From Tetraselmis striata (lineage: Eukaryota > Chlorophyta > Chlorodendrophyceae > Chlorodendrales > Chlorodendraceae): a stretch of 64,000 nt of DNA. The notes under the pieces were generated by a model, which did no database searches, was not told where the DNA came from, and worked only from the letters and a program-made list of their open reading frames with translations. Shown in pieces: positions 13,321 through 54,669 of the stretch. The stretch covers positions 1 through 64,000 of the forward strand of contig VCJN01000132.1 of the NCBI GenBank assembly GCA_006384855.1, read 5' to 3'. The first letter of the stretch is position 1. Each line of letters begins with the position of its first letter. The translations under genes were made by a program, and so were the position numbers.

Positions 13321-14209
13321 TGTAAGTATTATAGTTACATGAGCTAGTTGCAAAGGGCAATCAGGAAACCACTATATGGGTAGTATATGTAAGTGATATA
13401 GTTACATGAGCTAGCTGCAAAAGGCGATCAGGAAATCACCCAAAAAGGAAATATAGGAAACGTCCTTCAACAATTGCGAGGTGGAAACAGCACCAGAAGA
13501 GGGTGCGAAATGACCACGGGCAAACGCATCACACTTGGCCGTCTGCACTCCGGCAGAGAGAATGCCGCCCAAGGTACCATGCATGCAAGCAGAGACTCAC
13601 TGCAAGTAAGTAATATTTACATGAGCTAGCAGCAGAAGGCGATATCAAGAAATCACCACAAAAGGACAATCAGAAAGGTCCTCTACAACAACTGCGAGGT
13701 GGAAGCAATAGCAGGAGAAGATGCAGAATGGGCACGAGCTCACGCATCAGACTTGGCCATCTGCACACCGGCAAGAGAATGCCGCCCAGGGTACCATGCA
13801 CGCAAGCAGAAACCCGCTGCAACAGCCCCCGCTGTGTGCGCGACAGGTGACGGCGGAACTCAGCATGTTGGCTAGCGACAAAGTTCCGAAGTGCCTGAAC
13901 GGACTGACCACGAAGGAAGCATGAGGTCGGGGCGGAAGGACCTCCAGGGAAGTTGCGCATAGCCAACAGCACCGCGAAGATGTAGACCACCGTCAAAGAG
14001 GACTTCCCGAGATGGCCGCGGTCCTCAACCACAAAAAAGGTTGTACCGGTGAACACCCTGCACTGGGGCGGAAGACGCCCGGTCCGCTGCCAACTTACCC
14101 TGCTCCGCCTCGGTCGCCGCGATTCCCGGGGTGCACCAGCGGATGTCGTTGCTTCAAGTAGGGGTCGCGAAGGACACGCACGCGAAGTCGATCATGTAAT
14201 CGCCCGCCG

Positions 14210-14249
<40 letters not shown>

Positions 14250-14580
14250 ACCCACCCCGCCAGCGTCAAGTCCGACGGCCGCGAGCGGTCCGCTGGGCGC
14301 AGCCCACTCGTCTCAAGGGTCAAGTCGCCGGCTCCCGAGCGGTGCCTGTCAAGCACCGCCCCCGCATCAATTGCCACAGATGCAAGTAAGTTACATTATA
14401 ATTACATGATGAGCTAGCAGCAGCAGGCGATATCAGGAAGTAACCAGAAAAGGAAAATCAGAAAGGTCCTCTGTAAGTAAGTAATATATACTTACATGAG
14501 CTAGCAGCAGAAGGCGATATCAGGAAATCACCAAAAGAAGGATAATTAGCAAGGTCCTCTAAGTAAGTAATATAGTATCC
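13321..14580 (-). mobile_element. stack of 5'-truncated LINE-B 3' ends
   Basis: The LINE-B 3' end (plus-strand motif TTACATGAGCTAGC followed by AGAAGGCGATATCAGGAAATC) occurs at about 13338, 13403, 13618, 14403 and 14494, all in the same orientation. Each is followed by a different length of LINE-B: about 45, 210, 770, 80 and 70 bp. The longest (about 13610-14385) encodes on the minus strand VVEDRGHLGKSSLTVVYIFAVLLA, part of the LINE C-terminal domain. Repeated GTAAGTAAGTAATAT sequence lies at the junctions. This is a head-to-tail pile of truncated insertions into one another's tails. Confidence 0.7.
14210..14247. repeat. poly(C) tract, 38 nt
   Basis: An uninterrupted C run inside the LINE-B copy. 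The 18.9-20.3 kb copy has a shorter C run in the same position and the 51-52 kb copy has almost none, so the tract length varies between copies. Confidence 0.9.
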
Positions 14581-14913: not shown

Positions 14914-17744
14914 ATGATGATTTGCAGCTCGGTGCTTGCGGCGTCCGCCGTCCCTTGCAGTGCGGTGCAGCCGCAGGCCAAGACGGCCCGTCGCAGCAAG
15001 GCGCTTCTTGCAAGTCGCCAGACTCTTCGAGACCCCGTGAGCCGCCGCGGCTTCAGTTCCCCGAGCCATGTCGTGGTTGGGAAGAGCACCGTGAGCCGCA
15101 GGCACGTGGTCCGTATCTCCAACGCGTCGTCGCCCACGGTGGACGCTCCGACTGCTGAAGTCGGAGGCGCAGCCACCTACGACTGCGTTGTGGTGCGTAT
15201 CAACTGAGGAGGAAGCGCCGTCTTGCCACATTGTCTGTTATGTATACCGTGACAGTGATGCTGCTGTAAGGTCTCAGTGACTTGAATTTTGCTGTGTGTG
15301 GACAGGTTGGCGGGGGTATCTCCGGCCTCTGCACTGCTCAGGCGCTGGTGTCCAAGCACCGCGATGTCTGCGGGAAGGTTCTTGTGACCGAAGCCCGTGA
15401 GCGCGTGGGCGGCAACATCACTAGCATGTCCGATGACTCCTACCTGTGGGAGGAAGGCCCAAACAGCTTCCAGCCCAACGATGCCATCCTGTCCATGGCT
15501 GTACGCCCCCCGACGCCGCACAGAAAAACAAATGCCCTAGGCAGTCAATCAGCCTATTGCATTGATGGGAAGTTAGCCTTCCGGATCTGTGGGTGCAAAG
15601 AGTCGCAGTTGATTATTATACATTCTCTTCCCACATAGGCGCAGCAAGTGAAGCAAGGCCTGTCTTGCTCTGCTATCGCGGTGCAGGTCGAGGCCGGTTG
15701 CGACAAGGACCTGGTGCTGGGCGACCCCACCGCGCCTCGCTTTGTGTACTGGGACAAGAAGCTGCGGCCGACGCCATCTGGCCCGGATGTCCTGACCTTC
15801 GATCTCCTGACCATCTGGGGCAAGATCCGCGCCGGGCTGGGAGCTGCGGGCATCCTCAAGGCACCGCGTCCGGAAGGTAGTCCTGCCAGGACTGGCCTGT
15901 TGCAGAGCCACACACCTGCCTAAACGCGTGAAGGGGAAGAGTGTCATGACTCAGCACCAGCTGCACCATACCTGCACATGCACAGCGCCATCTGTTGGCG
16001 GCATACTTTGATACTGACACCGTGCGTATTGGTCCATCAGGCGAGGAGTCTGTGGAGCAGTTTGTCCGCCGGAACCTCGGCGATCAGGTCTTCGAGCGGC
16101 TGATCGAGCCATTCTGCTCCGGTGTCTATGCGGGCGACCCCTCTAAGCTGTCCATGAAGGCGGCCTTTGGCAAGGTGTGGCATCTGAGCTGCTGCCTGCT
16201 GCTGTGTTGGCGGTGCCATTGGGCAACCATCCGGGCGCTGCTGACCGGAAGCTGCCTTGCAGGTTTGGAACTTGGAAGACATCGGAGGCTCAATTGTGGG
16301 TGGTGCCATCAAGATCATCCAGAAGAATAAGACCGACCCTCCTCCTCCGCGGGACCCCAAGCTCCCTCCCAAGCCAGCTGGCCAGACCGTTGGCTCGTTC
16401 CGTGAGGGCCTGAAGATGCTGCCCGAGGCGATCGAGGCGAACATCTCGGACAAGATCAGGTAGGCTATGATTGGCAAGCTAGCCAAAGTACATCACGACG
16501 TGCACTCTGCACGTTCTTCATGTGCGCTCTCCATGGGCTTGGCAATGGCTGGCTGATGGCCGCTCCTACGCGTGCACACAGGTGTAACTGGAAGCTGTCC
16601 AAGATTGCCAAGTCCGGCGATCTGTACGTCCTGGATTACTCCACCCCTGATGGAGACGTCTCCATCAAAGCGCGCTCTGTGGCCCTGACGTGCCCATCCT
16701 ACGTGGCGGCATCGCTGCTGGAGGACGCAGCGGTATGTCTCTGGGGCGCCATACTATTAGGCATATGCAAAGCATGTGTTAGGCAGCTGGATAGTACAGC
16801 TTGGCAGGCGGCTGGCAGTTAACGGAAGCTTTGCTGCTCTGCGCAGGCTGATGCGGCCACTGCCCTGAGCTCTTTCGACTACCCCCCTGTCGCTGCCGTC
16901 ACCCTCGCGTACCCGCTCACGGCGTTCCGGGCGGAGCGCTTTGACGCCAGCGGAAAGATCCCTGGCTTTGGGCAGCTGCACCCGCGGTCGCAGGTACAGA
17001 AAAAGGGCCTGCTACTGCAGGTTTCCTTGCTGGAATACACGCCCGCTGGCAGCTGGGCGCCAGGAACTGAGGAGCGGGTGCCTTGTTGCGCAGGGCGTCA
17101 CTACGCTGGGCACCATCTACAGCTCGTCCCTGTTCCCCGGCCGCTGCCCCGAGGGCCAGCAGCTGCTCCTCAACTACATTGGGGGGTCGACCAACCGCGG
17201 CATTGTGAACCAGACCCAGGAAGAGATTGTTGCGCAGGTGACATAGCATGCTATGCACGCGATCTGACAGCGCCGACATATTCACCCCTGTCCTGCCACC
17301 GGCTGGGTTTTGCCATCACTGACTCCCCATTCCTGCTGTTATTTGTAATCTGTCTTGATTCCAGGTGAACAAGGACTTGCGCAAGGAGGGAATGCCTCTC
17401 AAGGACGATGCTCCCGAGCCTACCGTCGTGGGTGTCAGGGTCTGGCCCCGCGCTATCCCGCAGTTCAACGTGGGCCACCAGGACAAGCTTGATCAGGCTA
17501 CAGCCGCTCTGAAGGCGAACAACTTTGATGGTGTGCATCTGGGCGGTAACTACGTCGCTGGCGTGGCTCTGGGGAAGTGCGTAGAGTTCTCATGGGAGTA
17601 CGCGTCCAACATCGCCGCTTATGTGAAGGTGCTGCCAACTCGCACTCACACCTGCGCACCATGAAGTGTTTCGCACCCATCTGCCACTGCATGTGTGCTA
17701 AATTATAACGTGCTGCTGGCCAACAGGCTGCTGCGTCCAAGTGA
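14914..17744 (+). CDS. PPX1: protoporphyrinogen oxidase, chloroplast
   Basis: The enzyme oxidises protoporphyrinogen IX to protoporphyrin IX with FAD and O2, the last step shared by haem and chlorophyll synthesis. Ten exons (14914-15192, 15306-15500, 15687-15876, 16041-16174, 16263-16459, 16582-16732, 16847-16993, 17094-17237, 17365-17628, 17727-17744) total 1719 nt, giving 572 aa. The first ~85 residues are Ser/Ala/Arg-rich, a chloroplast transit peptide. The FAD Rossmann motif VVGGGISGL is split by intron 1, followed by [10 protein letters not shown] and EEGPNSFQP. Family blocks [39 protein letters not shown] and [12 protein letters not shown] are intact, as is the C-terminal FAD motif ([19 protein letters not shown]). 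Length and order match plant and algal PPOX1. The start is the first of two adjacent ATGs. Confidence 0.95.
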
Positions 17745-18860
17745 AGATGCACACCACCGGAGCAGCAGCTCCTGATGCCCCCGTAGCAACTATCCCGGGA
17801 CAGTCTGAGCGCCTCGTTTGTGTGGTCTGGGCTTGATAGCGCGGCATCATGTGTAGTAGCCAAGGCCGACATGTGCCTGCTGGGGCGATACCATAGGACC
17901 AAATATGTAGAGTTATTCAGAAACACCCCTCAGCCAGTGCTTCTCATCATGTCCACAACTGGTGACGCAATGCCGCCACCTTGCAGGCGGGTAGAAGACT
18001 TAATCGATACTCTGAAGTTGCATATGTGCTGTAGTTGGTGCATGGTGGTTGTATTGTTGATAATGCCCGGCAGGCAGCAGCAGACCTGGCTGATCCAGGA
18101 ACCAAAGGAAAGGAAGGCCCATGCGGTAGCGCAGGTGGTGTCATGTGCAGTGCCTACTAGTCGAGCTTTTGAGGCTCAGCGTATTGGGACCAAAACAACC
18201 AAGATGATTGTCATGGTCGTGGTGCAGTCGTAGTCGCCCAGCAGCGCCGCGGCGGCACCAGTAGGCGGTGCGCGCAGGGGGAAACGGCGGACGCCTGCGA
18301 ACGTTGCCGCACTGGCTGAAGACTACTGGCAAGCTGCTGCGACATCAATCAATGCAGGGGTAACTGCGCATGGTGCTCAAGTAAGGCAAGGATTTAAAAA
18401 GAGGATTAACACATTTTTATTATACATCACCGATTTTTCTCACTTATAGGGGGTTTATAAATCTTATCTTAAGGTAGGATTGTACTTATTTACATGCTGA
18501 AAGGATGACAGGATTATTTATCCTCACAAGGCGTATCCGTATATAAGGATTACTGATAAATAATCCTCTGACGACAGCAGCAGCACAAAGACAGGGGATG
18601 TATACCCAGGCGAGCCGGGGACGTCAATGGTCTGTTTTGCCGACTTCGGACCTGTGGTGATAGTGGCGGCGAAACGATGTTTTGGAAGGGGCGGCACGCC
18701 CGCGTGCGTCGCGCGGTCTCCGCGGCGACGTTATGAATAATTTGGAATTCTTACGACTTAATCCCCGCTGGGTTTTTGATGCTAAACGGGTGGACGGGCC
18801 AGCTATATTACGGCCCGGAGGCACAACCCCGCATAAGGCAGAAGGCGAAGGAAACCACCA
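17745..18860. other. intergenic, AT-rich in part
   Basis: No gene is seen. 17745-18360 is the 3' flank of protoporphyrinogen oxidase; no clear TGTAA was spotted close to the stop. From 18370 to 18570 the sequence is unusually AT-rich and contains a perfect foldback. The rest to 18860 runs into LINE-B. Confidence 0.4.
18510..18567. repeat. perfect 13-bp inverted repeat (MITE-like foldback)
   Basis: AGGATTATTTATC (18510-18522) pairs exactly with GATAAATAATCCT (18555-18567) across a 32-nt loop that itself contains GTATCC/AAGGAT. It sits in a local AT-rich island. Confidence 0.7.
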
Positions 18861-22333: not shown

Positions 22334-22790
22334 TTAAGCGGTTGAGGATGCGGCCTCCTCGGCCACCACGAGTTGCGCCGCTGGCACTGTGGAAGCCTTG
22401 GCGTTGAGGTGGGCCTTACGGCGCTCCCGGACGAACTTGCGCGCGGCACAAGTTAGCCACGAGTGGGTGCGTGCTAATGCGGAGGATGGAGTGTTTTGTT
22501 GCGCGCCCACCTTGTCACGGGTTTCCTCATGTCTTTCTCGTCCTCCTCGATGCCGGCGGCGCGGACACGCGAGACAACAAGGCTCGCCGCCCACTTTTGC
22601 CCGGGGGGGCGAGGTCGGCCATGGCGCTGTGAGCGGTGAAGGGGGGGGGGGGGGGGGCGGGGGGGGGGGGGGGGGGGGGGGGGCGCGGCCGAGGTGGAGA
22701 AACTAACACCCAGTCGACGACCGCCTTCCGCAGCAGTCAACGACACATCGGAGGCGAGGAGCAGCGCGCCACTACTATTTATATGCACGT
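22334..22790 (-). pseudogene. remnant of an unrecognised minus-strand gene
   Basis: Minus-strand segments MADLAPPGQKWAASLVVSRV...EEDEKDMRKPVTRW (about 22622-22500) and THSWLTCAARKFVRERRKAHLNAK (about 22470-22400) look coding but lie in different frames. A poly-G interruption at 22641-22683 lies upstream. Together with the charged segment at 22030-22210 they could be one decayed gene. The function is unknown. Confidence 0.25.
22641..22683. repeat. poly(G) tract (17 + 25 nt, one C between)
   Basis: Two G runs separated by a single C, at 22641-22657 and 22659-22683. Confidence 0.9.
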
Positions 22791-23078: not shown

Positions 23079-24240
23079 GCACTCCGCAAGCCTCGCCTCC
23101 ATCCGCGTCGGAACCGGTAGCGCGCTAGTAAGTGTTGTTGTGTGCGCACATCGTGACAACATTACACGGTGGCAATTGCAATTATTAGCGGTGGATAATG
23201 TGAAGGCGTTTTCGAAATCGACAGAGAATGAGGCGGTGCTGGCGGAGTGCATTGGCGGTGCACATAATAGCGTGTTGCTGGGGTTTTGGCTGCATCGGAC
23301 GCCGTATTCCCACCCATCCGGCACGGAATGTCCGGTTTTCACACATTTGTGTGTTAATAAAGCAGTGTGAATATTACGCGTCTTTTACGCCGGGTGGATG
23401 GGCATCCGGCGTCCGATGCACCCCAATTATTTGCAGCACGCTACTCTACGCACCCCCAACGCACTCCGCAAGCCTCGCCTCCATCCGCGTCGGAACCGGT
23501 AGTAAGTGTTGTTGTGTGCGCACATCGTGACAACATTACACGGTGGCAATTGCAATTAGCGGTGGACAATGTGAAGGCGTTTTCGAAATCGACGGAGAAT
23601 GTGGCGGTGCTGGCGGAGTGCATTGGCGGTGCACAGAATAGCGTGTTGCTGGGGTTTTGGCTGCATCGGACGCCGTATTCCCACCCATCCGGCACGGAAT
23701 GTCCGGTTTTCACACATTTGTGTGTTAATAAAGTGTGAATATTACGCGTCTTTTACGCCGGGTGGGTGGGCATCCGGCGTCCGATGCACCCCAATTATTT
23801 GCAGCACGCTACTCTACGCACCCCCAACGCACTCCGCAAGCCTCGCCTCCATCCGCGTCGGAACCGGTAGTAAGTGTTGTTGTGTGCGCACATCGTGACA
23901 ACATTACACGGTGGCAATTGCAATTAGCGGTGGGTAATGTGAAGGCGTTTTCGAAATCGACAGAGAATGAGGCGGTGCTGGCGGAGTGCATTGGCGGTGC
24001 ATAGAATAGCGTGTTGCTGGGGTTTTGGCTGCATCGGACGCCGTATTCCCACCCATCCGGCACGGAATGTCCGGTTTTCACACATTTGCGTGTGAATATA
24101 TATAGTGTGAATATTACGTAGGCGTCTTTTACGCTGGGTGGATGGGCATCCGGCGTCCGATGCACCCCGAATCTCACCAACACGCTACTCTACGCACCCC
24201 CAACGCATTCCGCCAGCCCCCCCTCTTTCCGCGCAGGTCC
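23079..24240. repeat. tandem ~370-bp satellite, three copies plus partial
   Basis: The start GCACTCCGCAAGCCTCGCC recurs at 23079, 23461 and 23829, with a diverged fourth start near 24206, giving periods of about 382, 368 and 377 bp. The copies are nearly identical. Each unit holds an imperfect foldback: GGCTGCATCGGACGCCGTATTCC pairs with a later GGCATCCGGCGTCCGATGCACC. The open frames seen across the array simply repeat the unit and are not genes. Confidence 0.85.
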
Positions 24241-26699: not shown

Positions 26700-28663
26700 G
26701 TTTTCAGCGGCTGCCGTCCACAGCTTGTAATGCATCCCTTTCCGCCGATTCCGCTGTATGCGCTGTCTTGGCGCCGCGCTGCCCCGGCCGCCGCTGTCTT
26801 GGCGCCGCGCTGCCCCGGCCGCCGCTGTCTTGGCGCCGCGATGCCCCGGCCGCCGCTGTCTTGGCGCCGCGCTGCCCCGGCCGCCGCTGTCTTGGCGCCG
26901 CGCTGCCCCGGCCGCCGCTGTCTTGGCGCCGCGCTGCCCCGGCCGCCGCTGTCTTGGCGCCGCGCTGCCCCGGCCGCCGCGCCTTGGCGCCGCGCTGCCC
27001 CGGCCGCCGCGCCTTGGCGCCGCGCTGCCCCGGCCGCCGCGCCTTGGCGCCGCGCTGCCCCGGCCGCCGCGCCTTGGCGCCGCGCTGCCCCGGCCGCCGC
27101 GCCTTGGCGCCGCGCTGCCCCGGCCGCCGCGCCTTGGCGCCGCGCTGCCCCGGCCGCCGCGCCTTGGCGCCGCGCGGGGTATCGAGTCCTCCCCTCCCCA
27201 GTGAGCGCGTCCACCTGCGCCTTGCGCTCGGGGCCGTCCTCCTCCGTCACCACATTCTGCAACCCCCACCGCGTGACGAACCACGCAGCTCCTTGCATGC
27301 GCTTGTACATGTGCCCAAGCACCGCCTAGGGACGCGAAGCTCCTTCTCGGTCATGATCGCCTTCACCCGGGCCTCCTCGAGCAGCGGACCGGCGTTAAGA
27401 ATGGAAAACGTTTCCATGTGGTGCAAGCAGTCCTCCATGACCCAGCCGGACTGCACCGTCACCTTGCCTGACCCTGCAGTCATGGAGGGGAATGCCGTCA
27501 CGCCCACGCCCACGCCCACGCTCACGCCCGGGGGGGGGGGGGGGGGGGGGGGGGGGTTACCTTTCGATTCTTGGACACTGCAAACGAAGGGCGCAACCCG
27601 CGTTCAAAGTTGCTGGGTATCGGGACTAAAGCCTGGCGCCGGTCTTCCTGCTTCATAGCTCGGAATCCAATGTGGCCCTGCACGGTGACAAATTTCCTCC
27701 AGAAGTCCCTTCCCAAGCCAAAAAAAAACAGGTGGAACGGCGCGAGGGGGAAGAGGTTGATCATGTTGACATAGCCCAGGACCACATGCACATGGCACAC
27801 GCCATGGCAGCCAGTGTTCTGCTTGGCCTCCGCCAGCCGGGTTGTGTTGAACGCACGCCGGGCAAGGTGCGTGATTCACTGGACAAGTCATCGCCTTGAT
27901 GGACGGTTACCAAGCGAGCCTCCCCGTCCGCATCCACAGTGGGGTGCTCCTGGGCAGCCGCCATAGCCTCCACAACCTGCCACGCCGACCGGGTGGGTGC
28001 GTGTGATTCCATACAACCGCAGGTGAGTGGTGCCACCAGCACACAGGCCGGGCCCACTCACCTCTGAACGCAGAAGGTCCACAATGTCACCGTCCTCGAA
28101 AACAGCGCGCCACTGGGTCGCCCCGCCGTAGTCCTCCAACACCCACTCGGTAACGACGCCGGTTATCACGCCGTAGTGCCATACTCCCCGGAACTTCTTG
28201 GCGATGACCTTCATGTAGAAGTCGCCGGGATCGCCTTTCCATATCACGCCCTCATCGCGGGTTCGACGCCCGCCGGCGGCCACGCAGGCGCGTCGATGTC
28301 CATACCGTCTTCGCCAACGGGGTCCTCCCCCACGCCCATCACATCGTCCACCTTCGAGCCGCCGTCGTCCGAGACCGGCGCCGGCGGGCCGTTTCCGACG
28401 GCTGCAGCTACTCCTGCTGCCGCGCTTGTTGCTGCTGTTGCTGCTGCTGCTGCTGCTGCCGCCCCTGCTGCTGCTGGTTGTGATAAGGCGGCCTTGCGGC
28501 GCAACTTAGCCGCACGCTTCAACGAGTGGCTACAGTTCGGGTATTTCCGGAAGTGCCGCTCTCGCGCCGTCCTTTCACTACTACCCGTCACGATGCCGTG
28601 GCAGTGCTTGCATGTGTACACGCCATCCTTCGACACACTCGCTATCCATCCCTTTGCCGGCAT
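26700..28663 (-). pseudogene. second transposase-like gene with N-terminal zinc finger, decayed
   Basis: The minus-strand start at 28663 encodes MPAKGWIASVSKDGVYTCKHC...RHFRKYPNCSH, a BED-like C-x2-C...H...H finger, then a basic and an Ala-rich linker. A frame change near 28275 leads to a Tudor/agenet-like segment, GDFYMKVIAKKFRGVWHYGVITG...WRAVFEDGDIVDLL, ending at a GT donor near 28062. Further segments read HVHVVLGYVNMINLFPLAPFHLFFFGLGRDFWRKF (27800-27690) and LGHMYKRMQGAAWFVTRWGL (27320-27260). The G/YVNMxxxFxLxPFHxxxxGLxxDFW pattern resembles the mid-region of CACTA-like or KDZ-like transposases. Internal poly-G and a minisatellite disrupt it. It could be host-derived, but a transposase origin is more likely. 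Confidence 0.45.
26767..27175. repeat. 30/31-bp GC-rich minisatellite, about 14 units
   Basis: The unit is CTTGGCGCCGCGCTGCCCCGGCCGCCGC plus TGT or GC. The left seven units are 31 bp and the right seven are 30 bp. The 30-bp class keeps the minus-strand frame of the overlapping transposase-like gene (ten-residue repeat ARRQGAAAGA); the 31-bp class rotates all frames, so apparent long ORFs on the plus strand are artefacts. Confidence 0.9.
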
Positions 28664-30084: not shown

Positions 30085-33000
30085 AATCATCGACCCTCGG
30101 GATTGGGAAGACCTCTTGCCCCGGGCGTACCAAGACTGCCCCCCCCCCCCCCCCCCCCGTCGGGCGCCACACGCCCGAGCATGTGGCGGCCCCGTAACGA
30201 CGAGGCCGACCGCTATCTCACTGAGGCCAACAAGATTGCGTCGCGCGACGAGTACCGCCACCTGCTGTGCTATGGCGTCTACCACGCCGCCGCTAACGCG
30301 GCGGCTAAGACAGCTCTGGCTACGCTTCGCGCGCCCGATACCCCCACCCAAGACCGCGTCGACGCCCTCGACCTACTCGACGCCGCGCGTCGCACGCTTG
30401 AAGCAGTGGGCGGCGCGGATGAGGCCAGGCTCACCTACCTTCGACGCTTCAAGGCCAAGAAAGCCCTCATCACCCACAGAGGCGGGAGCAGCAACGCCGC
30501 GAGGCGGACGCCAAGAACCGCGACAAGAACGGCGGCAGGACCGACGACAAGATTCGCGACTGACGGTGTGGCGCGCCGCGCCGACAGATGTTGCCCCGAC
30601 TCCGACTACATGCGTCACCGCGTAAGGCGGAGTTGGCGGAACTGGCGAGACATCGGCGCGAGCACGCAAGTGACGAGCTGGATACGGGATGGCGTACGCG
30701 TGCCTTTCCGCTACAACCGGTGTCCCCCAAGGTTCAACCAAGGCGTCTCGTTCAACGACGCAACCCCTGCCCAACTCAAGTTCCTCACCGCCGAACTAAG
30801 ACGCTTTACGGCGGCCGGCGCGTGGGATGGGAGAAGTCGTCGTGCGCATGGTGGGTGTCCCGGGCGTTCTTCGTTCGGAAGCCCGGCGACAACCAGTGGC
30901 GTTTCATCATCGACCTCCGCGTGCTCAACACCTTCTGTGCGCGCAAGCGACTACGGATGGAAACACTCATGGGCGACCGACACCTGACCGCGAAAGGGGA
31001 CTACATGTTTTCGTTCGACCTGCAAGATGGCTTCTATGCCCTGGGCATTGCGCCCTCCGACCGCGACTACTTCACAGTCAACATCCGCGGGACCTTCTAC
31101 TGGCTTGGCAGCCTTCCCATGGGCTGGTCGGTCAGCCCCTACTACTTCACGACGTTCACGATGACGTTCGTCAAGCACCTACACCCTCCGCCTACCCCCG
31201 CTGCGCCTGGCAATGTCCCGCGGTTGGGCCGCTGGCTGCGCCGCGGGCGGTGGAGGGGAGCGCGCATCTTACCATACGTCGACGATTTCTTGATGTTCGC
31301 CTCGTCGGAGCCGGAGGCGCTAGAGCTCCGCCATCGCGTCGCCGACTTGCTGGACAGCCTGGGCTTGCTGCGCAACCCCGCCAAAGGGCTGTGGGAGCCG
31401 GTCCAGTACGGCCAGCACCTGGGGGTGGACATCGACACAGCCACGGGATATTATTATGCCCCGGTGGACAAACTGCAGCGGCTCGCGCGCCAAGCCAAGC
31501 ATCTGCTGCAGCGCGCGGCCCGCGACGCCCGTTGGCTGCCCGTGCGGGAGCTGCAGTCGCTCGTTGGGCGGGCTCAATACCTTTTCTTGGCAATCCCGGC
31601 CGCGCGCTTCTACCTGTGGGAGCTCCACGACGTGGTGGGCTCCAAGTGGGGCGGCCGAGTGCGCATGACACACCAGCTGCGGCGCAACCTGCAGTGGTGG
31701 ACCGCCGTGCCGACTCATGCCAACGGCCGCCCTATCCACCGCCCTGTGGAGACGGCCTACATGCACTGCGACAGCTCCGGCTACGGTTGGGGTGCAGTGC
31801 TGAATGTCATGCTGGAGTCGCGGGGGTTCTTGGGGGCAGCCGACGAGCGCCAGCACATCACCTGGAAAGAAGTGAAGGCCGCTCGGCTGGCAGTGGAGTC
31901 TTTCCTGCCGCATCTCGCCGGTCGCCGCATGTTGCTGCACGAGGACAACCAGGCGGTGTGCAGCGTCCTTGCTGGCCTCACCTCCCGCTCTCCGGCGATG
32001 ATGGCGGAACTACACAAGCTATGGTACCTCCTGGACAGCAACGGCGTACACATCAGAGCCCGCTACATCCGGTCCGCCGTGAACGTCTGGGCGGATCGAT
32101 TGAGCCGACACCTCGACAGCGACGACTGGCAAACTGGACCCCGTCTTGTTCGCCGAGCTGGAGGCAATGTGGGATGCGCACTCCGTCGATCGGGTTCGCA
32201 TCAGCCCTGAACGCGATGCTACCACGCTACAACGCTGCGTGGTTGGACCCCGGATGCGAGGCGGTGGACTCCCTGCACCTGGCCGATGCGGAGTGGCGTC
32301 GCGAGAACAACTACTGCAACCCCCCTTGGCCGCTTCTGCCGGACATGGTGCAGAAGCTGCGCCAGAGCGGCGCGGCCGCCACCGTCGTGGCCCCTCGCTG
32401 GGAGGGCAAGGTGTGGCACCATGCACTTACCGAGATGGCGGTGGCGGAGCGCGTGGTACTGCCTCGCCGCGATCTTTTTCGGCCGGGGCGAAGGGAAGGG
32501 CGCGATATGCCCGGACCGCGGCGCTGGGCAGTGAGTGTCTTCCGTGTGCCATACCGTCATGGCTGCACCTGCGCCGCGGATCAGTGAGCGCAACCTTGGC
32601 GCTGTTCCCGGTACGAGGTGCTACGCCTGTCGTCAGGCCCGCGCGCGCCACGCGTGCCGCAGGCAAAATATCTGTTGGACATCCAGACCAGCGGCACGAA
32701 CCCGTGGGCAGCTACCATGCGTCCGTACATGCGTTCAGTACTAGGTAACGACCAACTCGGCGAAACGGCGCTTTAATTTATTTGTACGCGTCGGCGTGGG
32801 CAGATACTACCGCCAGTACGTACGGCAGTGCCATCCGTCCATTCCTACAGTTCAGCGCCGAGCAGGGTGTGCCGCCCCTGGATGACACGGCGGCAACCGT
32901 CGCGCGCTACATCGCGTGGCAGGGTTTGCGGGGGACGGTCAAGGCAGCCAGTCTGCAGCCTTACCTTTCCGCGATCAACGGTTTCTACCGCGACCACGGC

Positions 33001-34207
33001 GCGGAGCCGGTGGCGCAAGGCGACCTCATCAGCAAAGTGAGAAAGGGCCTCGCGGCATCGCAAGTTGAGCCAGACGCGCCTGGGGTCCGCACCGACGTGC
33101 CCGCCCGGTTGATCACACGGACGTTGCGGCTGGCGGAGACCCTGCGTGAGGAGTTGGGACCCACATGGACCCACGACCGGCTTCCTCGTATCCTCTTGTT
33201 CCGCGCCGCGATGGCAGTCGTTGCCATGTATGTGTTCTACGCGCGTGGCAAGGCCGGCGTAGCCTACAAGACGGGCGGTTTGACGGTTACTGCAGATGGT
33301 ACAATCCTATTGTACCATCGGGACCGAAAAGGCAGACGCGGGCAGCACCGTGACCGTAAGTTACAGTGCCAGATCCCGGCGCGCGCGCAGCCCCGGATTG
33401 CGGCCTTGGTGCTCTATTTTGATGCCGCACGCGCAGTATACTGCGGTCAGCGCGGACTGCCAGCAACCCGGTGGGCAGTGACCCACGACGAGCCGGCGGC
33501 ATCGTGGACATCGGCCACCGTTACAGACTAGTTGCAGCTAGTGGCACATATGTTGGAGGAGCACCCGCCTCCCGGGTTTGTGTGGACGTCACACTCTCTC
33601 CGCAAGGGCGCGGCCACTGCGGCGTACGCCATCGGCGTGGTGCTGCAGAAGATCAAGCACTTTGGCGGCTGGGCGCAGTTGTCCAGCGTCGTGCTCGACT
33701 ACATCGATCCCACGGCGCTGCCGTGTGCGGCATCGTGGCAGCTCTTCGGTTGGCTTACCCCTTGGGGTGGGCCGCCAGCGACAAGCTGCCCGCCCATGGG
33801 CGGCATGATGGCAAACGCGGCCCCACAATGGTTAAATGGTCATATTGGTAATATAGAGGTTTGATTACACCGGGCTATTCTGTTACCGGTACTGGTAACG
33901 TTAAGATTCTACAGAAGTTTGAATGCTAGCTACCAGTACATGTACTCGCAGTAGTACGCGTACCGCTTGGACTTCCCGATGTCCAGCGGCGCTAGCGACA
34001 GCATGCGACAGCCCTGCTACATGACGCACCCGGATCACGAGGGGAGTCCACCTTCTGCCTTTGCGCCAGCTGGCCAGCTAGCGCAACCCACCAACCCCGC
34101 TATGCGACTCTTTTCATTGCGGACAGTACGCCCCGTGGGCCTACTCACACCCAAAAATGTAAGAGATTCACATCTTTGGCAACGCGGCCCCACAATGGTT
34201 AAATCGG
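30085..34207 (+). mobile_element. DIRS/PAT-type (Kangaroo-like) YR retroelement A, broken
   Basis: Fossil retroelement. Parts in order: end of a gag-like ORF (to about 30600), reverse transcriptase plus RNase H (about 30800-32100), tyrosine recombinase (about 32780-33760), and a right-hand repeat block (33800-34207). The reverse transcriptase shows DLQDGFYALGI and ILPYVDDFL; the recombinase shows the HSLRKGAATAAY block. The right end carries the short repeat GCGGCCCCACAATGGTTAAA twice, flanking a longer repeat, as in split direct repeat elements. No left-hand repeat copy was recognised. It looks broken, with a few disruptions. High similarity to element B at 47-51 kb suggests a fairly recent origin. 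Confidence 0.85.
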
Positions 34208-35218
34208 CGGATGCCGCGGTTCCTACAGTGGGCGCATTCCTCGCGCGTTTTGTTGACGAATTATAATTTCTGCCTAAGGTCCACTTATCTAATAGTGCGT
34301 AGCGTGTAGCCCTCTAAAGACCATGTGCCAAAGCTATCGGACATATCCCGTCTCCTTTGTATTTTCTTTTTTGATTTATAGTAACCCACCCCCCCCCCCT
34401 CCCCTCCCCCCCATCCCTACCCGTACTCTCATCCGCTCTGGCCGGGCATTCCTTATGCTTTTTAGGGGCCCATACAAACCCAACTAGTCTCCCTCCTAAC
34501 GATAGCTGCCGCCCGCTATCCCGGCGGTTGCAGCTAGAGCGGACTCACGGATGTCCCCTCCCCTTCCACCCCATCCCAACCGGCAGAGCTGCAACGCCCC
34601 GGCTGAGGCAACCGAGGCGTCCCGCTGGCAGCGCCGTAGATGCTAGGCTCAGGGGCGGTCGGGGGCGTTGCGGTTAGCCAAGCTCGTGATGTGCCTCGTC
34701 CGGGAAGGGGCAAGGGCTTCGGCTGGTCCCGGTGATCTGCTGTGCGGGAGGGGTCTACAGGCCGGCAGCGGTGCTGGTGCCGGCCCGATGTGCGTCGCGA
34801 GTGGGAGGTGGCTGCGCTCGAGCTGTTGTGATCTCCTCGACCAGGGCAGCCATATTGCGGCGATCGAGTAGCCGTTTGCCGCGGGCCACCGGAAGAACGA
34901 CGCGGCGGCTCGCGGCCGGGTGCCCGATGCGGGCGCTTTAGTGGGGTATGGGGACTGATTCGTGGGGTTAGCCGCCATCCAGAGGTGTCAACAAGACGCG
35001 GCGGGGGCTGCGTAGCGTGCTGCGGCCGGGCGGGAAGGGCTCGGGAGAGGGTTGGGTGGGCTGTATGGCGGGTCGAGGGCGAATGTCGAGGCGGGCGCGG
35101 GGGGCGCGGCGGCGGCGGCCGGTCCGTAGGCGGCCGCGGCCGTTTGGCTTGATTACTGGTCGGGTCAGCAACCGCGGGCCGGCCCTCACCGGTGGGGCAG
35201 GGACGACCATGTCGGTCA

Positions 35219-39830: not shown

Positions 39831-39848
39831 GCATGCTAGAGGGGGGGG

Positions 39849-39850
<2 letters not shown>

Positions 39851-39883
<33 letters not shown>
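39851..39883. repeat. poly(G) tract, 33 nt
   Basis: Uninterrupted G run, preceded by a further eight G and one C. Confidence 0.9.
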
Positions 39884-47071: not shown

Positions 47072-50000
47072 AATGGCCATATTGGTAATATAGAGGTTTG
47101 ATTACACCGGGATATTCTGTTACCGGTACTGGTAACGTTCAGATTCTACAGTAGTTTGAATGCTAGCGACCAGTATCTGTACTCGCAGTACGCGTACCGC
47201 TTGGACTTCCCGATGTCCAGCGGCGCTAGCGACAGCATGCGACAGCCCTGCTACATGACGCACCCGCACCACGAGGGGAGTCCACCTTCTGCCTTTGCGC
47301 CAGCTGACCAGCTAGCGCAATGGCGTCGCACCTCTCGTAGGTGTGCAAGGTGTGAATATCTCTAGGAGTGGACGGTCTCGACGACTAGTCTTCCACCACG
47401 ACACTTGCGCACGCTACGATGGCAAACGGCAAGAAGGCGGCAGACCCTACGAAGGCAACGCCAACCGACAGTTTGGCCGTAACGCCCGCGGAGCCGACAG
47501 AGACGACACGGGACACGACAACGCTTGCGTTACTGCAAGGGCTGGTGTTGAAGGTGGACGCTTTATCGACCCGCTTGGACGAACAAGACAACAACAAGCA
47601 CAAGGAGCAGCGCGACATTCCCTCGGACGACGACGAAGTCGGCGAGAGTGGCAAGGAGCCGGAGCACGACGCCCGGACAACCGCTGCTACGGGGGGCGCG
47701 CGCGACGCCGCGGCCGTGTTCATCGACCCTCGGGATTGGGAAGACCTCTTGCCCCGGGCGTACCAAGACTGCCCCCCCCCCCCCCCCCCCCCCCCGTCGG
47801 GCGCCACACGCCCGAGCCTGTGGCGGCCCCGTAACGACGAGGCCGACCGCTATCTCACTGAGGCCAACAAGATTGCGTCGCGCGACGAGTACCGCCACCT
47901 GTTGTGCTATGGCGTCTACCACGCCGCCGCTAACGCGGCGGCTAAGACAGCTCTGGCTACGCTTCGCGCGCCCGATACCCCCACCCAAGACCGCGTCGAG
48001 GCCCTCGACCTACTCGACGCCGCGCGTCGCACGCTTGAAGCAGTGGGCGACGCGGATGAGGCCAGGCTCACCTACCTTCGACGCTTCAAGGCCAAGAAGG
48101 CCCTCACCCACAGAGGCGGGAGCAGCAACGCCGCGAGGCGGACGCCAAGAACCGCGACAAGAACGGCGGCAGGACCGACGACAAGATTCGCGACTGACGG
48201 TGTGGCGCGCCGCGCCGACAGATGTTGCCCCGACTCCGACTACATGCGTCACCGCGTAAGGCGGAGTTGGCGGAACTGGCGAGACATCGGCGCGAGCGCG
48301 CAAGTGACGAGCTGGATACGGGATGGCGTACGCGTGCCTTTCCGCTACAACCGGTGTCCCCCAAGGTTCAACCAAGGCGTCTCGTTCAACGACGCAACCC
48401 CTGCCCAACTCAAGTTCCTCACCGCCGAACTAAGACGCTTTACGGCGTCCAGCGCGTGGGATGGGAGAAGTCGTCGTGCGCATGGTGGGTGTCCCGGGCG
48501 TTCTTCGTTCGGAAGCCCGGCGACAACCAGTGGCGTTTCATCATCGACCTCCGCGTGCTCAACACCTTCTGTGCGCGCAAGCGACTACGGATGGAGACAC
48601 TCATGGGCGACCGACACCTGACCGCGAAAGGGGACTACATGTTTTCGTTCGACCTGCAAGATGGCTTCTATGCCCTGGGCATCGCGCCCTCCGACCGCGA
48701 CTACTTCACAGTCAACATCCGCGGGACCCTCTACCGGCTGTGCGGCCTTCCCATGGGCTGGTCGCTCAGCCCCTACTACTTCACGACGTTCACGATGACG
48801 TTCGTCAAGCGCCTACGCTCTCCGCCTACCCCCGCTGCGCCTGGCAATGTCCCGCGGTCGCGCCGCTGGCTGCGCCGCGGGCGGTGGAGGGGAGCGCGCA
48901 TCTTACCATACGTCGACGATTTCTTGCTATTCGCCTCGTCGGAGCCGGAGGCGCTAGAGCTCCGCCAGCGCGTCGCCGACTTGCTGGACAGCTTGGGCCT
49001 GCAGCGCAACCCAACCAAAGGGCTGTGGGAGCCGGTCCAGTACGGCCAGCACCTGGGGGTGAACATCGACACAGCCACGGGATATTATTATGCCCCGGTG
49101 GACAAACTGCAGCGGCTCGCGCGCCAATCCAAGCAACGGTTGCAGCGCGCGGCCCGCGACGCCCGTTGGCTGCCCGTGCGGGAGCTGCAGTCGCTCGCTG
49201 GGCGGGCTCAATACCTTTTCTTGGCAATCCCTGCCGCGCGCTTCTACCTGTGGGAGCTCCACGACGTGGTGGGCTCCAAGTGGGGCGGCCGAGTGCGCAT
49301 GACACACCAGCTGCGGCGCGACCTGCAGTGGTGGACCGCCGTGCCGACTCAGGCCAACGGCCGCCCTATCCACCGCGCTGTGCTGGAGACGGCCTACATG
49401 CACTGCGACAGCTCCGGCTACGGTCGGGGTGCAGTGCTGAATGGCGGCTGGAGGCGCGGGGGTTCTTGGGGGCAGCCGACGAGCGCCAGCACATCACCAG
49501 GAAAGAAGTGAAGGCCGTTCGGCTTGCAAAATATCTGTTGGACATCTAGACCAGCGGCACGAACCCGTGGGCAGCTACCATGCGTCCGTACATGCGTTCA
49601 GTACTAGGTAACGACCAACTCGGCGAAACGGCGCTTCATTTGTACGCGTCGGCGTGGGCAGAGACTACCGCCAGTACGTACGGCAGTGCCATCCGTCCAT
49701 TCCTACAGTTCAGCGCTGAGCAGGGCGTGCCGCCCCTGGATGACACGGCGGCAACCGTCGCGCGCTACATCGCGTGGCCGGGTTTGCGGGGGACGGTCAA
49801 GGCAGCCAGTCTGCAGCCTTACCTTTCCGCGATCAACGGTTTCTACCGCGACCACGGCGCGTAGCCGGTGGCGCAAGGCGACCTCATCAGCAAAGTGAGA
49901 AAGGGCCTCGCGGCATCGCAAGTTGAGCCAGACCCGCCTGGGGTCCGCACCGACGTGCCCGCCCGGTTGATCACACGGACGTTGCGGCTGGCGAAGACCC

Positions 50001-51054
50001 TGCGTGAGGAGTTGGGACCCACATGGACCCGCGACCAGCTTCCTCGTATCCTCTTGTTCCGCGCCGCGATGGCAGTCGTTGCCATGTATGTGTTCTACGC
50101 GCGTGGCAAGGCCGGCGTAGCCTGCAAGACGGGCGATTTGACGGTTACTGCAGATGGTACAATCCTATTGTACCATTGGGACCGAAAAGGCAGACGCGGG
50201 CAGCACCGTGACCGTAAGTTACAGTGCCAGATCCCGGCGCGCGCGCAGCCCCGGATTGCGGACTTGGTGCTCTATTTTGATGCCGCACGCGCAGTATACT
50301 GCGGTCAGCGCGGACTGCCAGCAACCCGGTGGGCAGTGACCCACGACGAGCCGGCGGCATCGTGGACATCGGCCACCGTTACATACTAGTTGCAGCTAGT
50401 GGCACATTTGTTGGAGGAGCACCCGCCTCCCGGGTTTGTGTGGACGTCACACTCTCTCCGCAAGGGCGCGGCCACTGCGGCGTACGCCATCGGCGTGGTG
50501 CTGCAGAAGATCAAGCACTTTGGCGGCTGGGCGCAGTTGTCCAGCGTCGTGCTCGACTGCATCAATCCCACGGCGCTGCCGTGTGCGGCATCGTGGCAGC
50601 TCTTCGGCTGGCTTACCCCTTGGGGTGGGCCGCCAGCGACAAGCTGCCCGCCCATGGGCGGCATGATGGCAAATGCGGCCCCACAATGGTTAAATGGTCA
50701 TATTGGTAATATAGAGGTTTGATTACACCGGGCTATTCTGTCACCGGTACTGGTAACGTTAAGATTCTAGTGTGAATGCTAGCTACCAGTACATGTACTC
50801 GCGTTACGCATACCGCTTGGACTTCCCGATGTCCAGCGGCGCTAGCGACAGTATGCGACAGCCCTGCCACATGACGCACCCGCACCACGAGGGGAATCCA
50901 CCTTCTGCTTTTGCGCCAGCTGGCCAACTAGCGCAACCCACCCACCCCGCTATGCTACCCTTTGCAATGCGGACAATACACCCGTGGGCCTACTCACACC
51001 CAAAAATGTAAGAGATTCACATCTTTGGCAAATGCGGCCCCACAATGGTTAAAC
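47072..51054 (+). mobile_element. DIRS/PAT-type (Kangaroo-like) YR retroelement B with split direct repeats, broken
   Basis: Fossil retroelement. Parts in order: left repeat A1 (47072-47321), gag-like ORF (from 47419), reverse transcriptase/RNase H (about 48430-49500), tyrosine recombinase (about 49580-50620), then short repeat B1 (about 50655-50697), A2 (50697-50937) and B2 (about 51016-51054). The order A1-body-B1-A2-B2 is the split-direct-repeat layout of PAT-like DIRS elements such as Volvox Kangaroo. It looks broken by a few disruptions and is closely similar to element A at 30-34 kb. The right end abuts a LINE-B copy. Confidence 0.85.
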
Positions 51055-52260
51055 GGCCATTCCCCATGGAGTTGGTACTGATGAGGCCTCTGCTGTCCAC
51101 CAATCGCTTCCTATCAGTGGTACAAGTACTTCCAATACCGTTTCTACATGCGCTTATGTAGCTCTCAAGATACCGTCGCCCCGCGAATTAGTGGCACCCT
51201 ACTAGAACCGCAGCAAGGCGGTACTACAGCCCCGCCCTCGGATACGGGTACGGGCGCTGCCTCCGATGATCAACCCACGACCATGGTTGTCCAACGCCAC
51301 CTCAGCCGTGCGATTCGCTTGGGTGAATTCGTGGCCCTCGCTCTTGGCTTCCATCGCACGGGTGCTGCGGCCTCGCGACTTGATGCTCTGCGCTTGTGTA
51401 GCACGTGCGGGCCGGGCTCCCTATCTATCGCTTTTCCAGTCGGATCACGAAATTAGTCAGCCCGCAAGATTCCCTATTTTGCTTATTCGGCCGCCGCTGT
51501 GCGGGTGCTTGGCCTTCACCCGCGCGGGGGTTCTGCGCTTGTCACACGCCCTGGCCCCACGTGTGGTATTGACCCCTTATGGCTTCGCTGTACGGTTGGC
51601 TCGAACCGGAACGCTACGGATTTCGTCGTGGATCATCTGCCCCTCTGCCCCGTTGCGAAGTACAAGCACCGCATGCATACCGCTTTGAAAGACCTGTGGG
51701 CTTCCGTGGCGATCGAAGCGGGGGCGGTGCTCGACCGGGACCGCTCGGGAGTCGGCGACTTGACCCTTTAGACGAGCGGGCTGCGCCCAGCGGACCGCTC
51801 GCGGCCGTCAGACTTGACGCTGGCGGGGTGGGGGGGCCCGGCGTGCGATTACATGATCGATTTCGCGTGCGTGTCGTCCCCAACCCCCACTTCGGGCAAC
51901 GACCCCCGCTGGTGCACCAATGGGGATCGCGGCGACCGAGGCGGATCACAACAAGGTGGCGGCGGACCGGGCTTCTTCCGCCCCGGTGCAAGGTGCTCAC
52001 CGGTACTACCCTTTTCTGGTTGAGGACCGCGGCCGCCTCGGAAAATCCGCTTTAGCGGTGGTCTACATCTTCGCGATGTTACTTGCTGTGCTCAACTTCC
52101 CTGGGTGTCCTTCCGCCCCGACTTCATGCTCATTCCGCACCCTCGTCTTCTGGTGCTGTTTCATCCACTGCGCAATTGCTGTAGTGAACGTTCCCCATTG
52201 CCTGTTCGGGTGGTTTCCTGATCGCCTTGATTTGCAGCTAGCTCATGTAAATATAATTAT
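51055..52260 (+). mobile_element. LINE-B copy, C-terminal half
   Basis: This matches 18870-20310 reversed, from CCCCATGGAGTTGGTACTG to GCAGCTAGCTCATGTAA. Plus-strand blocks include HLSRAIRLGEFVALALGFHRTG, KHRMHTALKDLWASVAIEAGAV, and VEDRGRLGKSALAVVYIFAMLLA. The homopolymer present in the other copies is nearly absent here. Frame changes show it is dead. The left boundary is the end of the DIRS-type element. Confidence 0.65.
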
Positions 52261-52274
52261 AAATATAACCTATA

Positions 52275-52515
52275 ATTACTTCGAAGCTCCTTTCCTGTCG
52301 GCGCCTTCACATTACATTCGGCCTAGTGCCGCTATTGGAGTGGCCCGGGATTGTGTGCTGGGGAGAGCGTCCCTACTGCGTGGAGCGGCGGCTGGCTGGT
52401 GGGGATGCCTGGTCGGAGGCTACCTGTACCATTGCGGTTCCCGCCTCTGTTGGCCCGTAGCTGGATTTCCTTCTGGATTTCCTTCTGGATTTCTGTGTGG
52501 ATTTCTTGAATGTTG
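52275..52515 (+). repeat. dispersed ~235-bp repeat, copy 1
   Basis: ACTTCGAAGCTCCTTTCCTGTCG through to TTTCTTGAATGTTGC, matching 62040-62275 in reverse orientation. It ends in the GCTAGCTCATGTAA tail type of LINE-B and may be a LINE-B-related 3' end. TTCCTTCTGGA is duplicated internally. Confidence 0.6.
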
Positions 52516-52533
52516 CGTCTAGCTCATGTAATC

Positions 52534-52960
52534 ATTATAGTACATGAGCCAGCAGCAGAAGGGGATATCAGGGAATCACCAAAAAAAGGACAGTCAGAGA
52601 GGTCCTCTGTAAGGATATGTACCACACAAATCCCCATGTGGGTACCCAGTGCCTGGTGCGTTTTGCGCAGTATCCTTACAGTTGGTGCTTCTACGCACGC
52701 GGATCCGGGTTCGATCCCGCGGAGAACCATAAATGATATGATATCCCGCAAGGTTGGACAACCCGCGATCCGCGGATCGCCACCGAATCCAAGCCGAAAC
52801 GTTGCTGGAGGAGGTCCTCCATCCTATGGGGGGGGGTGGAGTGTAAGGATATGTACCACACAAATCCCCATGTGGGTACCCAGTGCCTGGTGCGTTTTGC
52901 GCAGTATCCTTACATCCTCTACAGCGACTGCTCATTCCCCTACCTCTTGGGTTGAGCGGA
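52534..52960 (-). mobile_element. LINE-B 3' tail carrying the small LTR element
   Basis: TACATGAGCCAGCAGCAGAAGG (about 52541) starts a LINE-B tail. The sequence GGTCCTC at 52601-52607 continues after 52914 as TCCTCTACAGCGACTGC, matching the tail copy near 13675. The small LTR element lies exactly between. Confidence 0.55.
52608..52914 (+). mobile_element. 307-bp SMART/TRIM-type LTR retroelement
   Basis: Two identical 73-bp terminal repeats (52608-52680 and 52842-52914) begin TGTAAGGATA and end TATCCTTACA, so they have TG...CA ends and a longer terminal palindrome. The element is flanked by a 5-bp duplication TCCTC (52603-52607 and 52915-52919). A primer-binding-site-like TGGTGCTTCTACGC starts 2 nt after the left repeat, inside a tRNA-like stretch containing GGTTCGATCCC. 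A purine tract GGGGGGGGGTGGAG lies directly before the right repeat. The 161-bp interior has no coding capacity. It looks whole for its class, and identical repeats imply a young, non-autonomous copy. Confidence 0.8.
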
Positions 52961-53019
52961 GGAAAAGGAGAGCCGCGTCCGAAATCGCCTGGAATACGCG
53001 AGAATTGATACCGGTTGCA

Positions 53020-53310
53020 ATACGGTTTTATCACGGATTTTTAGGCGTCCGTCCTCCGTCCTCCGTCCGTCCTCGTGTGCTGCGTCTTCGTGAATGAACC
53101 GTCATACGTTCGATCTGTGCTCGTTTGATTTCTAGGCACTCCTACCACAGTCCGTAAAAATCCTGCGACTAGGACGGATCTATCGTGAATTATACCGGAA
53201 ACATACTGCAAAAATCACGAATGTCCGTCCTTCGTCCTCCTGTGCTGCGTCTTCGCGTATGAACCGTCATACGTTCGATCTGTGCTCGTTTGATTTCTAG
53301 GCACACCTCC
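53020..53310. repeat. tandem duplication, ~166-bp period
   Basis: GTGCTGCGTCTTCG(T/C)G(A/T)ATGAACCGTCATACG and the following TTCGATCTGTGCTCGTTTGATTTCTAGGCAC occur at about 53077 and 53242. CGTCCTCCGT repeats precede each. Confidence 0.65.
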
Positions 53311-54004: not shown

Positions 54005-54669
54005 GCCGCACCACGCTCAACCCAAGAGGTAGGGGCACCTCCACAAATCCCCGGCGCGAAGCGCCGCTTAGTATGAATATATTATCACTTATTACTATTA
54101 TTAGGGAGCGGCGCGCCGCGTCGTCACGCGCCGTCACGCCGATGACAACACGTCGTCGTCGTCGCTCCCCCGGCCGGGCCGGCGGCGGCGGCGCCGATAA
54201 CCAAATAACGCGATGAATGCAATCGCCGACTGAGTCCAGCCAGGCGACGATGGGGAATTGCTAGCGAAGTTGTTCGCGTCGTCAGTGCCTTTCGCGGATT
54301 CCTGCCTTGCTCGGCAGTGCGGGTTTCTTGTTGGAGCGAGGCCTAGTCGCTGAGGCCGGCCTTGCTCGCCGAGCAGTGCCACTACACATGCTCGTCAGCC
54401 TTCTCAGCGGCAGCCGACTCGTCTCACAGGCCGCGTTCGTCGCCGGCAGAGGCGCCGCCCGGAGACGCGCCCCTCGCCCGGCATTACTCTCCAGGGGTAG
54501 TGAAAACACCCGAGAAGTTTCTGCTCTGTCTCGAAAACCCCCCGACGGCCCACGGTTGGGAAATTCTCTGAGCGGGGAGGTCCTCGTTTCGAGCGCGCGT
54601 CCTGATTGGCGGAGGAACGCTGCATCCTTTCCGCAGCGCGGTAGTATCTCCGCTGGGGCAGGGGAGGCT
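54005..54669. other. intergenic, upstream of tRNase Z
   Basis: No supported gene. GC-driven open frames occur on both strands. The right half should hold the tRNase Z promoter and 5' UTR. Confidence 0.4.

What the first reader, a model, noticed from the sequence alone, without database searches (positions are those of the whole stretch)
52608..52914. Extremely small, intact-looking LTR element (SMART/TRIM type)
The 307-bp element has identical 73-bp terminal repeats, TG...CA ends, a 5-bp TCCTC duplication, a primer-site-like sequence and a polypurine tract, and it interrupts a LINE tail. SMART elements of this size are best known from land plants. A young algal copy implies an active partner element in this genome.
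Basis: partly seen in the sequence, partly recalled or inferred. Interest (0 to 1): 0.8.

Follow-up and report, generated by a model that had tools for sequence, protein, structure and literature searches.

The report
Tiny LTR retroelement insertion (TRIM)
A 307-base jumping element with identical 73-base ends has inserted into a repeat in what may be algal nuclear DNA; it looks like an ordinary member of a known class of miniature retroelements that has already been reported from algae.

Summary
At 52608-52914 two identical 73-bp direct repeats enclose 161 bp, with TG...CA ends and TCCTC on both sides. The strongest evidence is a related copy of the target repeat (13618-13695) that runs through the site with a single TCCTC, so the 307 bp arrived as one unit. 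Of 21 listed exact direct-repeat pairs (25 bp or more, 60-1500 bp apart) it is the only one with TG..CA ends and a duplication. A purine tract adjoins the 3' repeat. The primer site is not above background, and the LINE label was not confirmed. Other copies, an autonomous partner and the host could not be tested: no genome is held. Best explanation: a non-autonomous LTR retrotransposon of TRIM/SMART type. The kind is known: a 2016 survey reports TRIMs in Chlamydomonas, Volvox and Chondrus, and a smallest TRIM of 233 bp in a land plant. Less usual are a perfect 10-bp inverted repeat at the ends of each LTR and an exact Pol III box B after the 5' LTR; the latter supports only a low-probability Pol III reading, since no tRNA model matches.

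The parts
52603..52607 (+). target-site duplication, left copy TCCTC
   Evidence: single copy in the related empty site 13618-13695
52608..52680 (+). 5' LTR, 73 bp, TGTAAGGATA...TATCCTTACA
   Evidence: identical to 52842-52914; 10-bp perfect terminal inverted repeat
52681..52841 (+). 161-bp internal region
   Evidence: no Rfam match at gathering score in the window
52683..52700 (+). possible primer-binding site TGGTGCTTCTACGCACGC; weak
   Evidence: position and TGG only; background 7.6%; no host tRNAs to compare
52708..52718 (+). exact match to a recalled Pol III box B consensus, GGTTCGATCCC; function not shown
   Evidence: 35 of 20000 shuffles of the element hold one on the + strand
52828..52841 (+). 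polypurine tract GGGGGGGGGTGGAG next to the 3' LTR
   Evidence: 13 of 14 purines; 0.62% of window positions reach it
52842..52914 (+). 3' LTR, 73 bp
52915..52919 (+). target-site duplication, right copy TCCTC
52541..52602 (+). left flank: target repeat, related to units at 13618, 14409 and 14493
52920..52931 (+). right flank: target repeat continues, TACAGCGACTGC (10 of 12 match the unit at 13618)

Best explanation
A non-autonomous miniature LTR retrotransposon (TRIM/SMART type) inserted at a TCCTC site in an older repeat. Shown: the anatomy, and insertion as one unit with a 5-bp duplication. Inferred from established LTR-element biology: an RNA of the element is primed by a host tRNA at a site after the 5' LTR, copied by the reverse transcriptase of another, autonomous LTR element, the second strand starts at the purine tract, and that element's integrase joins the TG/CA ends to a 5-bp staggered cut.
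For: Identical 73-bp direct repeats, TG..CA ends, 5-bp TSD; a related empty site with one TCCTC; the only such pair among 21 listed exact direct-repeat pairs; purine tract at the expected place; size and layout like the 292-bp SMART FRetro129 with 85-bp repeats, TGT..ACA ends and 5-bp TSD (PMC3281118, passages).
Against: No second copy in the window and 0 matches to three strict patterns in viral contigs and one in genome contigs; no eukaryote genome could be searched, so this is weak. Primer site not above background. No autonomous partner seen. The 10-bp perfect inverted ends of each LTR are longer than the 4 bp given for SMART LTRs and would also fit a DNA transposon. Two short target units happen to share the element's first six bases or nearly so after TCCTC.
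Confidence: 0.85

Rival explanations
1. A composite DNA-transposon structure: the 73-bp unit is itself a miniature inverted-repeat element with 10-bp ends, and two copies moved together with the 161 bp between them.
For: Each 73-bp unit has perfect 10-bp inverted ends; of 333 TG..CA 73-mers in the window only these two exceed 7 bp. TGTNR..YNACA ends also occur in Ginger DNA transposons (recalled, not tested).
Against: Neither unit has its own duplication on the inner side; only the outer pair has TCCTC. No solo 73-bp copy in the window. A purine tract sits at the LTR-element position.
Confidence: 0.08
2. Local duplication: the 73-bp repeats arose in place from the target repeat rather than by insertion.
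For: The window matches of two short target units (14409-14477 and 14493-14567) run 6 bp into the element; the first continues after TCCTC with TGTAAG as the LTR does.
Against: The unit at 13618-13695 has one TCCTC followed directly by the 3' flank. The LTR has no significant match to target units.
Confidence: 0.03
3. A Pol III-driven TRIM (TRIMp3-like): box B at 52708 promotes an RNA that starts late in the 5' LTR and stops at the T4 of the 3' LTR, giving a very short R region. This is a sub-case of the best explanation, not an alternative to it.
For: Exact box B; the only runs of 3 or more T on the + strand of the element are the T4 in each LTR; the length lies near the 311-bp lower limit given for Helenus.
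Against: No tRNA family match at E<=10. Box A is at chance: 34 of 35 box-B-bearing shuffles do as well. In Helenus the tRNA-like part lies in the LTR, here in the interior. One exact box B also occurs elsewhere in the window, at 28260.
Confidence: 0.08

Closest known systems
SMART (FRetro129 and homologues, grasses)
   Same: 292 bp, identical short direct repeats, TGT..ACA ends, 5-bp TSD, no predicted protein (PMC3281118, passages)
   Different: 85-bp repeats and a 122-bp interior there; 4-bp inverted LTR ends there, 10 bp here; sequence relationship not tested
TRIMs of plants and algae
   Same: Structure and size class; reported in Chlamydomonas, Volvox and Chondrus; smallest 233 bp with 52-bp LTRs, in Cajanus cajan (PMC4717578, passages)
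   Different: No sequences of those families were held for comparison, sizes of the algal ones not seen; copy number here unknown
Helenus / TRIMp3
   Same: 5-bp TSD in plant and fungal Helenus, similar minimum length, a box B (PMC10886601, abstract, Results and Discussion)
   Different: Box B lies in the interior; no box A above chance; no tRNA model match
Retrozymes
   Same: Non-autonomous elements with LTRs (search listing of PMC4918200 only; the rest recalled)
   Different: No hammerhead among Rfam matches at E<=10

Membership tests
TRIM | short direct terminal repeats with TG..CA ends | tested here: met
   73 bp, 73 of 73 identical
TRIM | 4-6 bp target-site duplication and insertion as one unit | tested here: met
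   TCCTC; related empty site
TRIM | very small and without retrotransposon proteins | tested here: met
   307 bp. Six stop-to-stop frames of 62-195 aa overlap it; none of the six has a Pfam match above cut-off, two have chance-level ones, E 1 and 0.11
TRIM | polypurine tract before the 3' LTR | tested here: met
   13 of 14 purines, 0.62% background; poly-G runs are common in this DNA, so moderate evidence
TRIM | primer-binding site complementary to a host tRNA | tested here: inconclusive
   TGG two bases after the LTR, background 7.6%; no tRNA gene in the window and no host tRNA set
TRIM | dispersed multicopy family and an autonomous partner | not testable with these tools
   no genome held; no other copy in the window
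SMART (grass family) | sequence homology to FRetro129 | not tested
   no SMART sequence was held
Helenus | tRNA-derived sequence with boxes A and B inside the LTRs | tested here: not met
   box B is internal, at 52708; no tRNA match at E<=10; box A at chance
Retrozyme | hammerhead ribozyme in the LTRs | tested here: not met
   4 weak Rfam matches at E<=10 in 52500-53000, none a hammerhead

The most novel reading that the evidence does not exclude
A Pol III-transcribed miniature LTR element whose promoter lies just inside the 5' LTR, over the primer-site region, and in which a single T4 in the LTR ends the RNA and leaves an R region of only about ten bases: a TRIMp3 layout with the promoter outside the LTR.
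Probability: 0.08. Interest if true: 0.55.

Novelty: new member of a known kind. Interest (0 to 1): 0.25.

Why it matters
It adds a very small, intact-looking candidate, with a clean related empty site, to a known class. If the host genome holds more copies, it could serve as an insertion marker and as a test of how little sequence an LTR element needs in order to be moved in trans.

Tried and rejected
Searching the window's own genome: none held. LTR-start, inverted-end and internal patterns in viral contigs: 0 matches each. An LTR pattern in genome contigs: 0. The inverted-end pattern TGTAAGGATA..TATCCTTACA in genome contigs: 4 prokaryote stretches; about 6 are expected by chance in 257 Gb at even base composition (my arithmetic), and BLAST of LTR, interior and whole element against all four loci gave no hit at E<=0.01 (first run). 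Reverse transcriptase of the second DIRS-like element as bait in viral contigs: 0. A target-repeat pattern in viral contigs: 0. These collections hold viruses and prokaryotes, so the zeros say little about a eukaryote element.

The cloverleaf fold of the 73-bp LTR (z -4.06, 1 of 200 shuffles as stable) was dropped as separate evidence: with the 10-bp ends kept and the middle shuffled, 83 of 1000 fold as well. ARAGORN on 52581-52940 at loosened thresholds gave 4 overlapping low-scoring calls on both strands, 0 in -mt mode and 846 with introns allowed: noise. The weak mir-320 match at 52916-52975 (20.4 bits, gathering score 55.5, E 0.044) was set aside as chance or an inverted repeat.

Full report
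Observation. The element at 52608-52914 is as described: two identical 73-bp direct repeats enclosing 161 bp, TG...CA ends and TCCTC on both sides. In a BLAST at E<=10 neither the LTR nor the interior has a significant match elsewhere in the window; the best are 10-16 bp. A script listed 21 maximal exact direct-repeat pairs of at least 25 bp, 60-1500 bp apart, after leaving out repeats of one or two letters; allowing up to 7 bases of trimming at each end, only this pair has TG..CA ends and a 4-6 bp duplication. Diverged LTR pairs would have been missed.

Insertion. Joining the flanks with one TCCTC gives a sequence that aligns to window 13618-13695 at 69 of 79 columns with one gap, across the junction. 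After TCCTC the right flank matches 10 of 12 bases; the chance of that at a given place is about 4e-5 (my arithmetic). Aligned with five other target units, three run through the site, of which only that at 13601 reads TCCTC there (the others TCCTT and TCCAA); the two short ones (14381, 14472) leave the 3' flank at or just after TCCTC. Against the cleanest reading of the left boundary: the matches of these two short units run 6 bp into the element, and one of them continues TGTAAG, like the LTR. I take this for coincidence, since nothing further aligns.

Target. It is a repeat with several copies in the window, but six open frames within 51205-52519 gave no Pfam match at E<=1 (which received 8 of the 40 frames listed). 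Its class is open. The right flank stops matching the unit at 52931, and a 22-bp perfect inverted repeat begins at 52937 (partner 54014-54035), which suggests another element there.

LTR-element signals. The 14 bases before the 3' LTR hold 13 purines, reached at 0.62% of window positions on the + strand (1.2% and 0.96% for 15 and 16 bases); poly-G and poly-C runs are frequent in this DNA, so this is moderate evidence. TGG begins two bases after the 5' LTR, but TGG at offsets 0-3 occurs at 7.6% of positions. ARAGORN finds no tRNA in the window and no host genome is held, so no primer can be named. Six stop-to-stop frames cross the element; Pfam gives none above cut-off and two chance-level matches, E 1 and 0.11.

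Unusual features. Each LTR ends in a perfect 10-bp inverted repeat; of 333 TG..CA 73-mers in the window only these two exceed 7 bp. SMART LTRs are given with 4 bp. The LTR folds as a cloverleaf (z -4.06), but 83 of 1000 controls that keep the ends are as stable. The whole element has z -5.3, the interior alone -1.65, with 11 of 200 shuffles as stable. An exact box B, GGTTCGATCCC, lies at 52708-52718; 35 of 20000 shuffles of the element hold one on the + strand, a figure that ignores that I chose the motif after looking. With one mismatch allowed the window as a whole holds no excess of such sites (13 against 15.65 expected), and a second exact one lies at 28260. Box A candidates score 5 of 8, as in 34 of the 35 shuffles with box B, and cmscan lists no tRNA at E<=10.

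Literature. SMART: 292 bp, 85-bp repeats, 5-bp TSD (PMC3281118, passages). TRIM survey of 48 genomes: TRIMs in Chlamydomonas reinhardtii, Volvox carteri and Chondrus crispus, none in four other algae; smallest 233 bp with 52-bp LTRs in Cajanus cajan (PMC4717578, passages). Helenus, Ajax and the TRIMp3 proposal (PMC10886601; abstract, Results and Discussion read). Sequences classed as TRIM, defined there as under 4 kbp and not checked by hand, in the haptophyte Tisochrysis lutea (PMC5963040, passages). The other papers were seen as listings only.

Host. Frames at 15270-15635 and 15950-16327 match protoporphyrinogen oxidase (TIGR00562, E 1.8e-17 and 2.2e-21; 63.1 and 76 bits against a whole-protein cut-off of 97.85), a third at 16823-17365 weakly (E 6.8e-4), a fourth at 17787-18230 not. 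The second also matches solved protoporphyrinogen oxidases (best E 1.3e-8), the third does not. Successive frames match successive profile parts, which fits a split gene. Window 30564-33528 holds a reverse transcriptase (E 3.8e-11) and a frame with weak, below-cut-off tyrosine-recombinase matches; a second copy at 47720-51057 is 96-97% alike by DNA, its proteins not scanned. This fits a eukaryote, possibly an alga; the organism was not identified.

Conclusion. A real insertion, most likely a TRIM-type LTR element (0.85), ordinary in kind. Copy number, activity and partner remain untested. The checked facts moved one figure: the Pol III rival went from 0.10 to 0.08, to agree with the novel case and with the second exact box B at 28260.

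Noticed in passing
15270-17365: Successive open frames matching successive parts of protoporphyrinogen oxidase, as in a split gene; the third match is weak. The best clue to a eukaryotic nuclear genome.
   Followed up: partly
30087-34208 and 47720-51057: Two copies, 96-97% alike, of what looks like a DIRS-type element; the first has a reverse transcriptase and weak tyrosine-recombinase matches, the second was not scanned.
   Followed up: partly
52937-52958 and 54014-54035: 22-bp perfect inverted repeat pair about 1.1 kb apart, starting just past the target homology; may be the ends of another element.
   Followed up: partly
13389-14567: Target-repeat units of about 217 bp, and shorter ones of about 90 bp that break off at or just after TCCTC, the same place where the element inserted.
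   Followed up: partly
23079-24233: Tandem array of a 368-bp unit, 3.1 copies.
   Followed up: no
26767-27175: Minisatellite of a 30-bp unit, 13.4 copies.
   Followed up: no
window-wide, e.g. 14210-14258, 22641-22683, 39841-39883: Eleven listed poly-G/poly-C runs of 27-49 bases.
   Followed up: no
53094-53139 and 53259-53304: 46-bp exact direct repeat, copies 165 bp apart, without TG..CA ends plus duplication.
   Followed up: no
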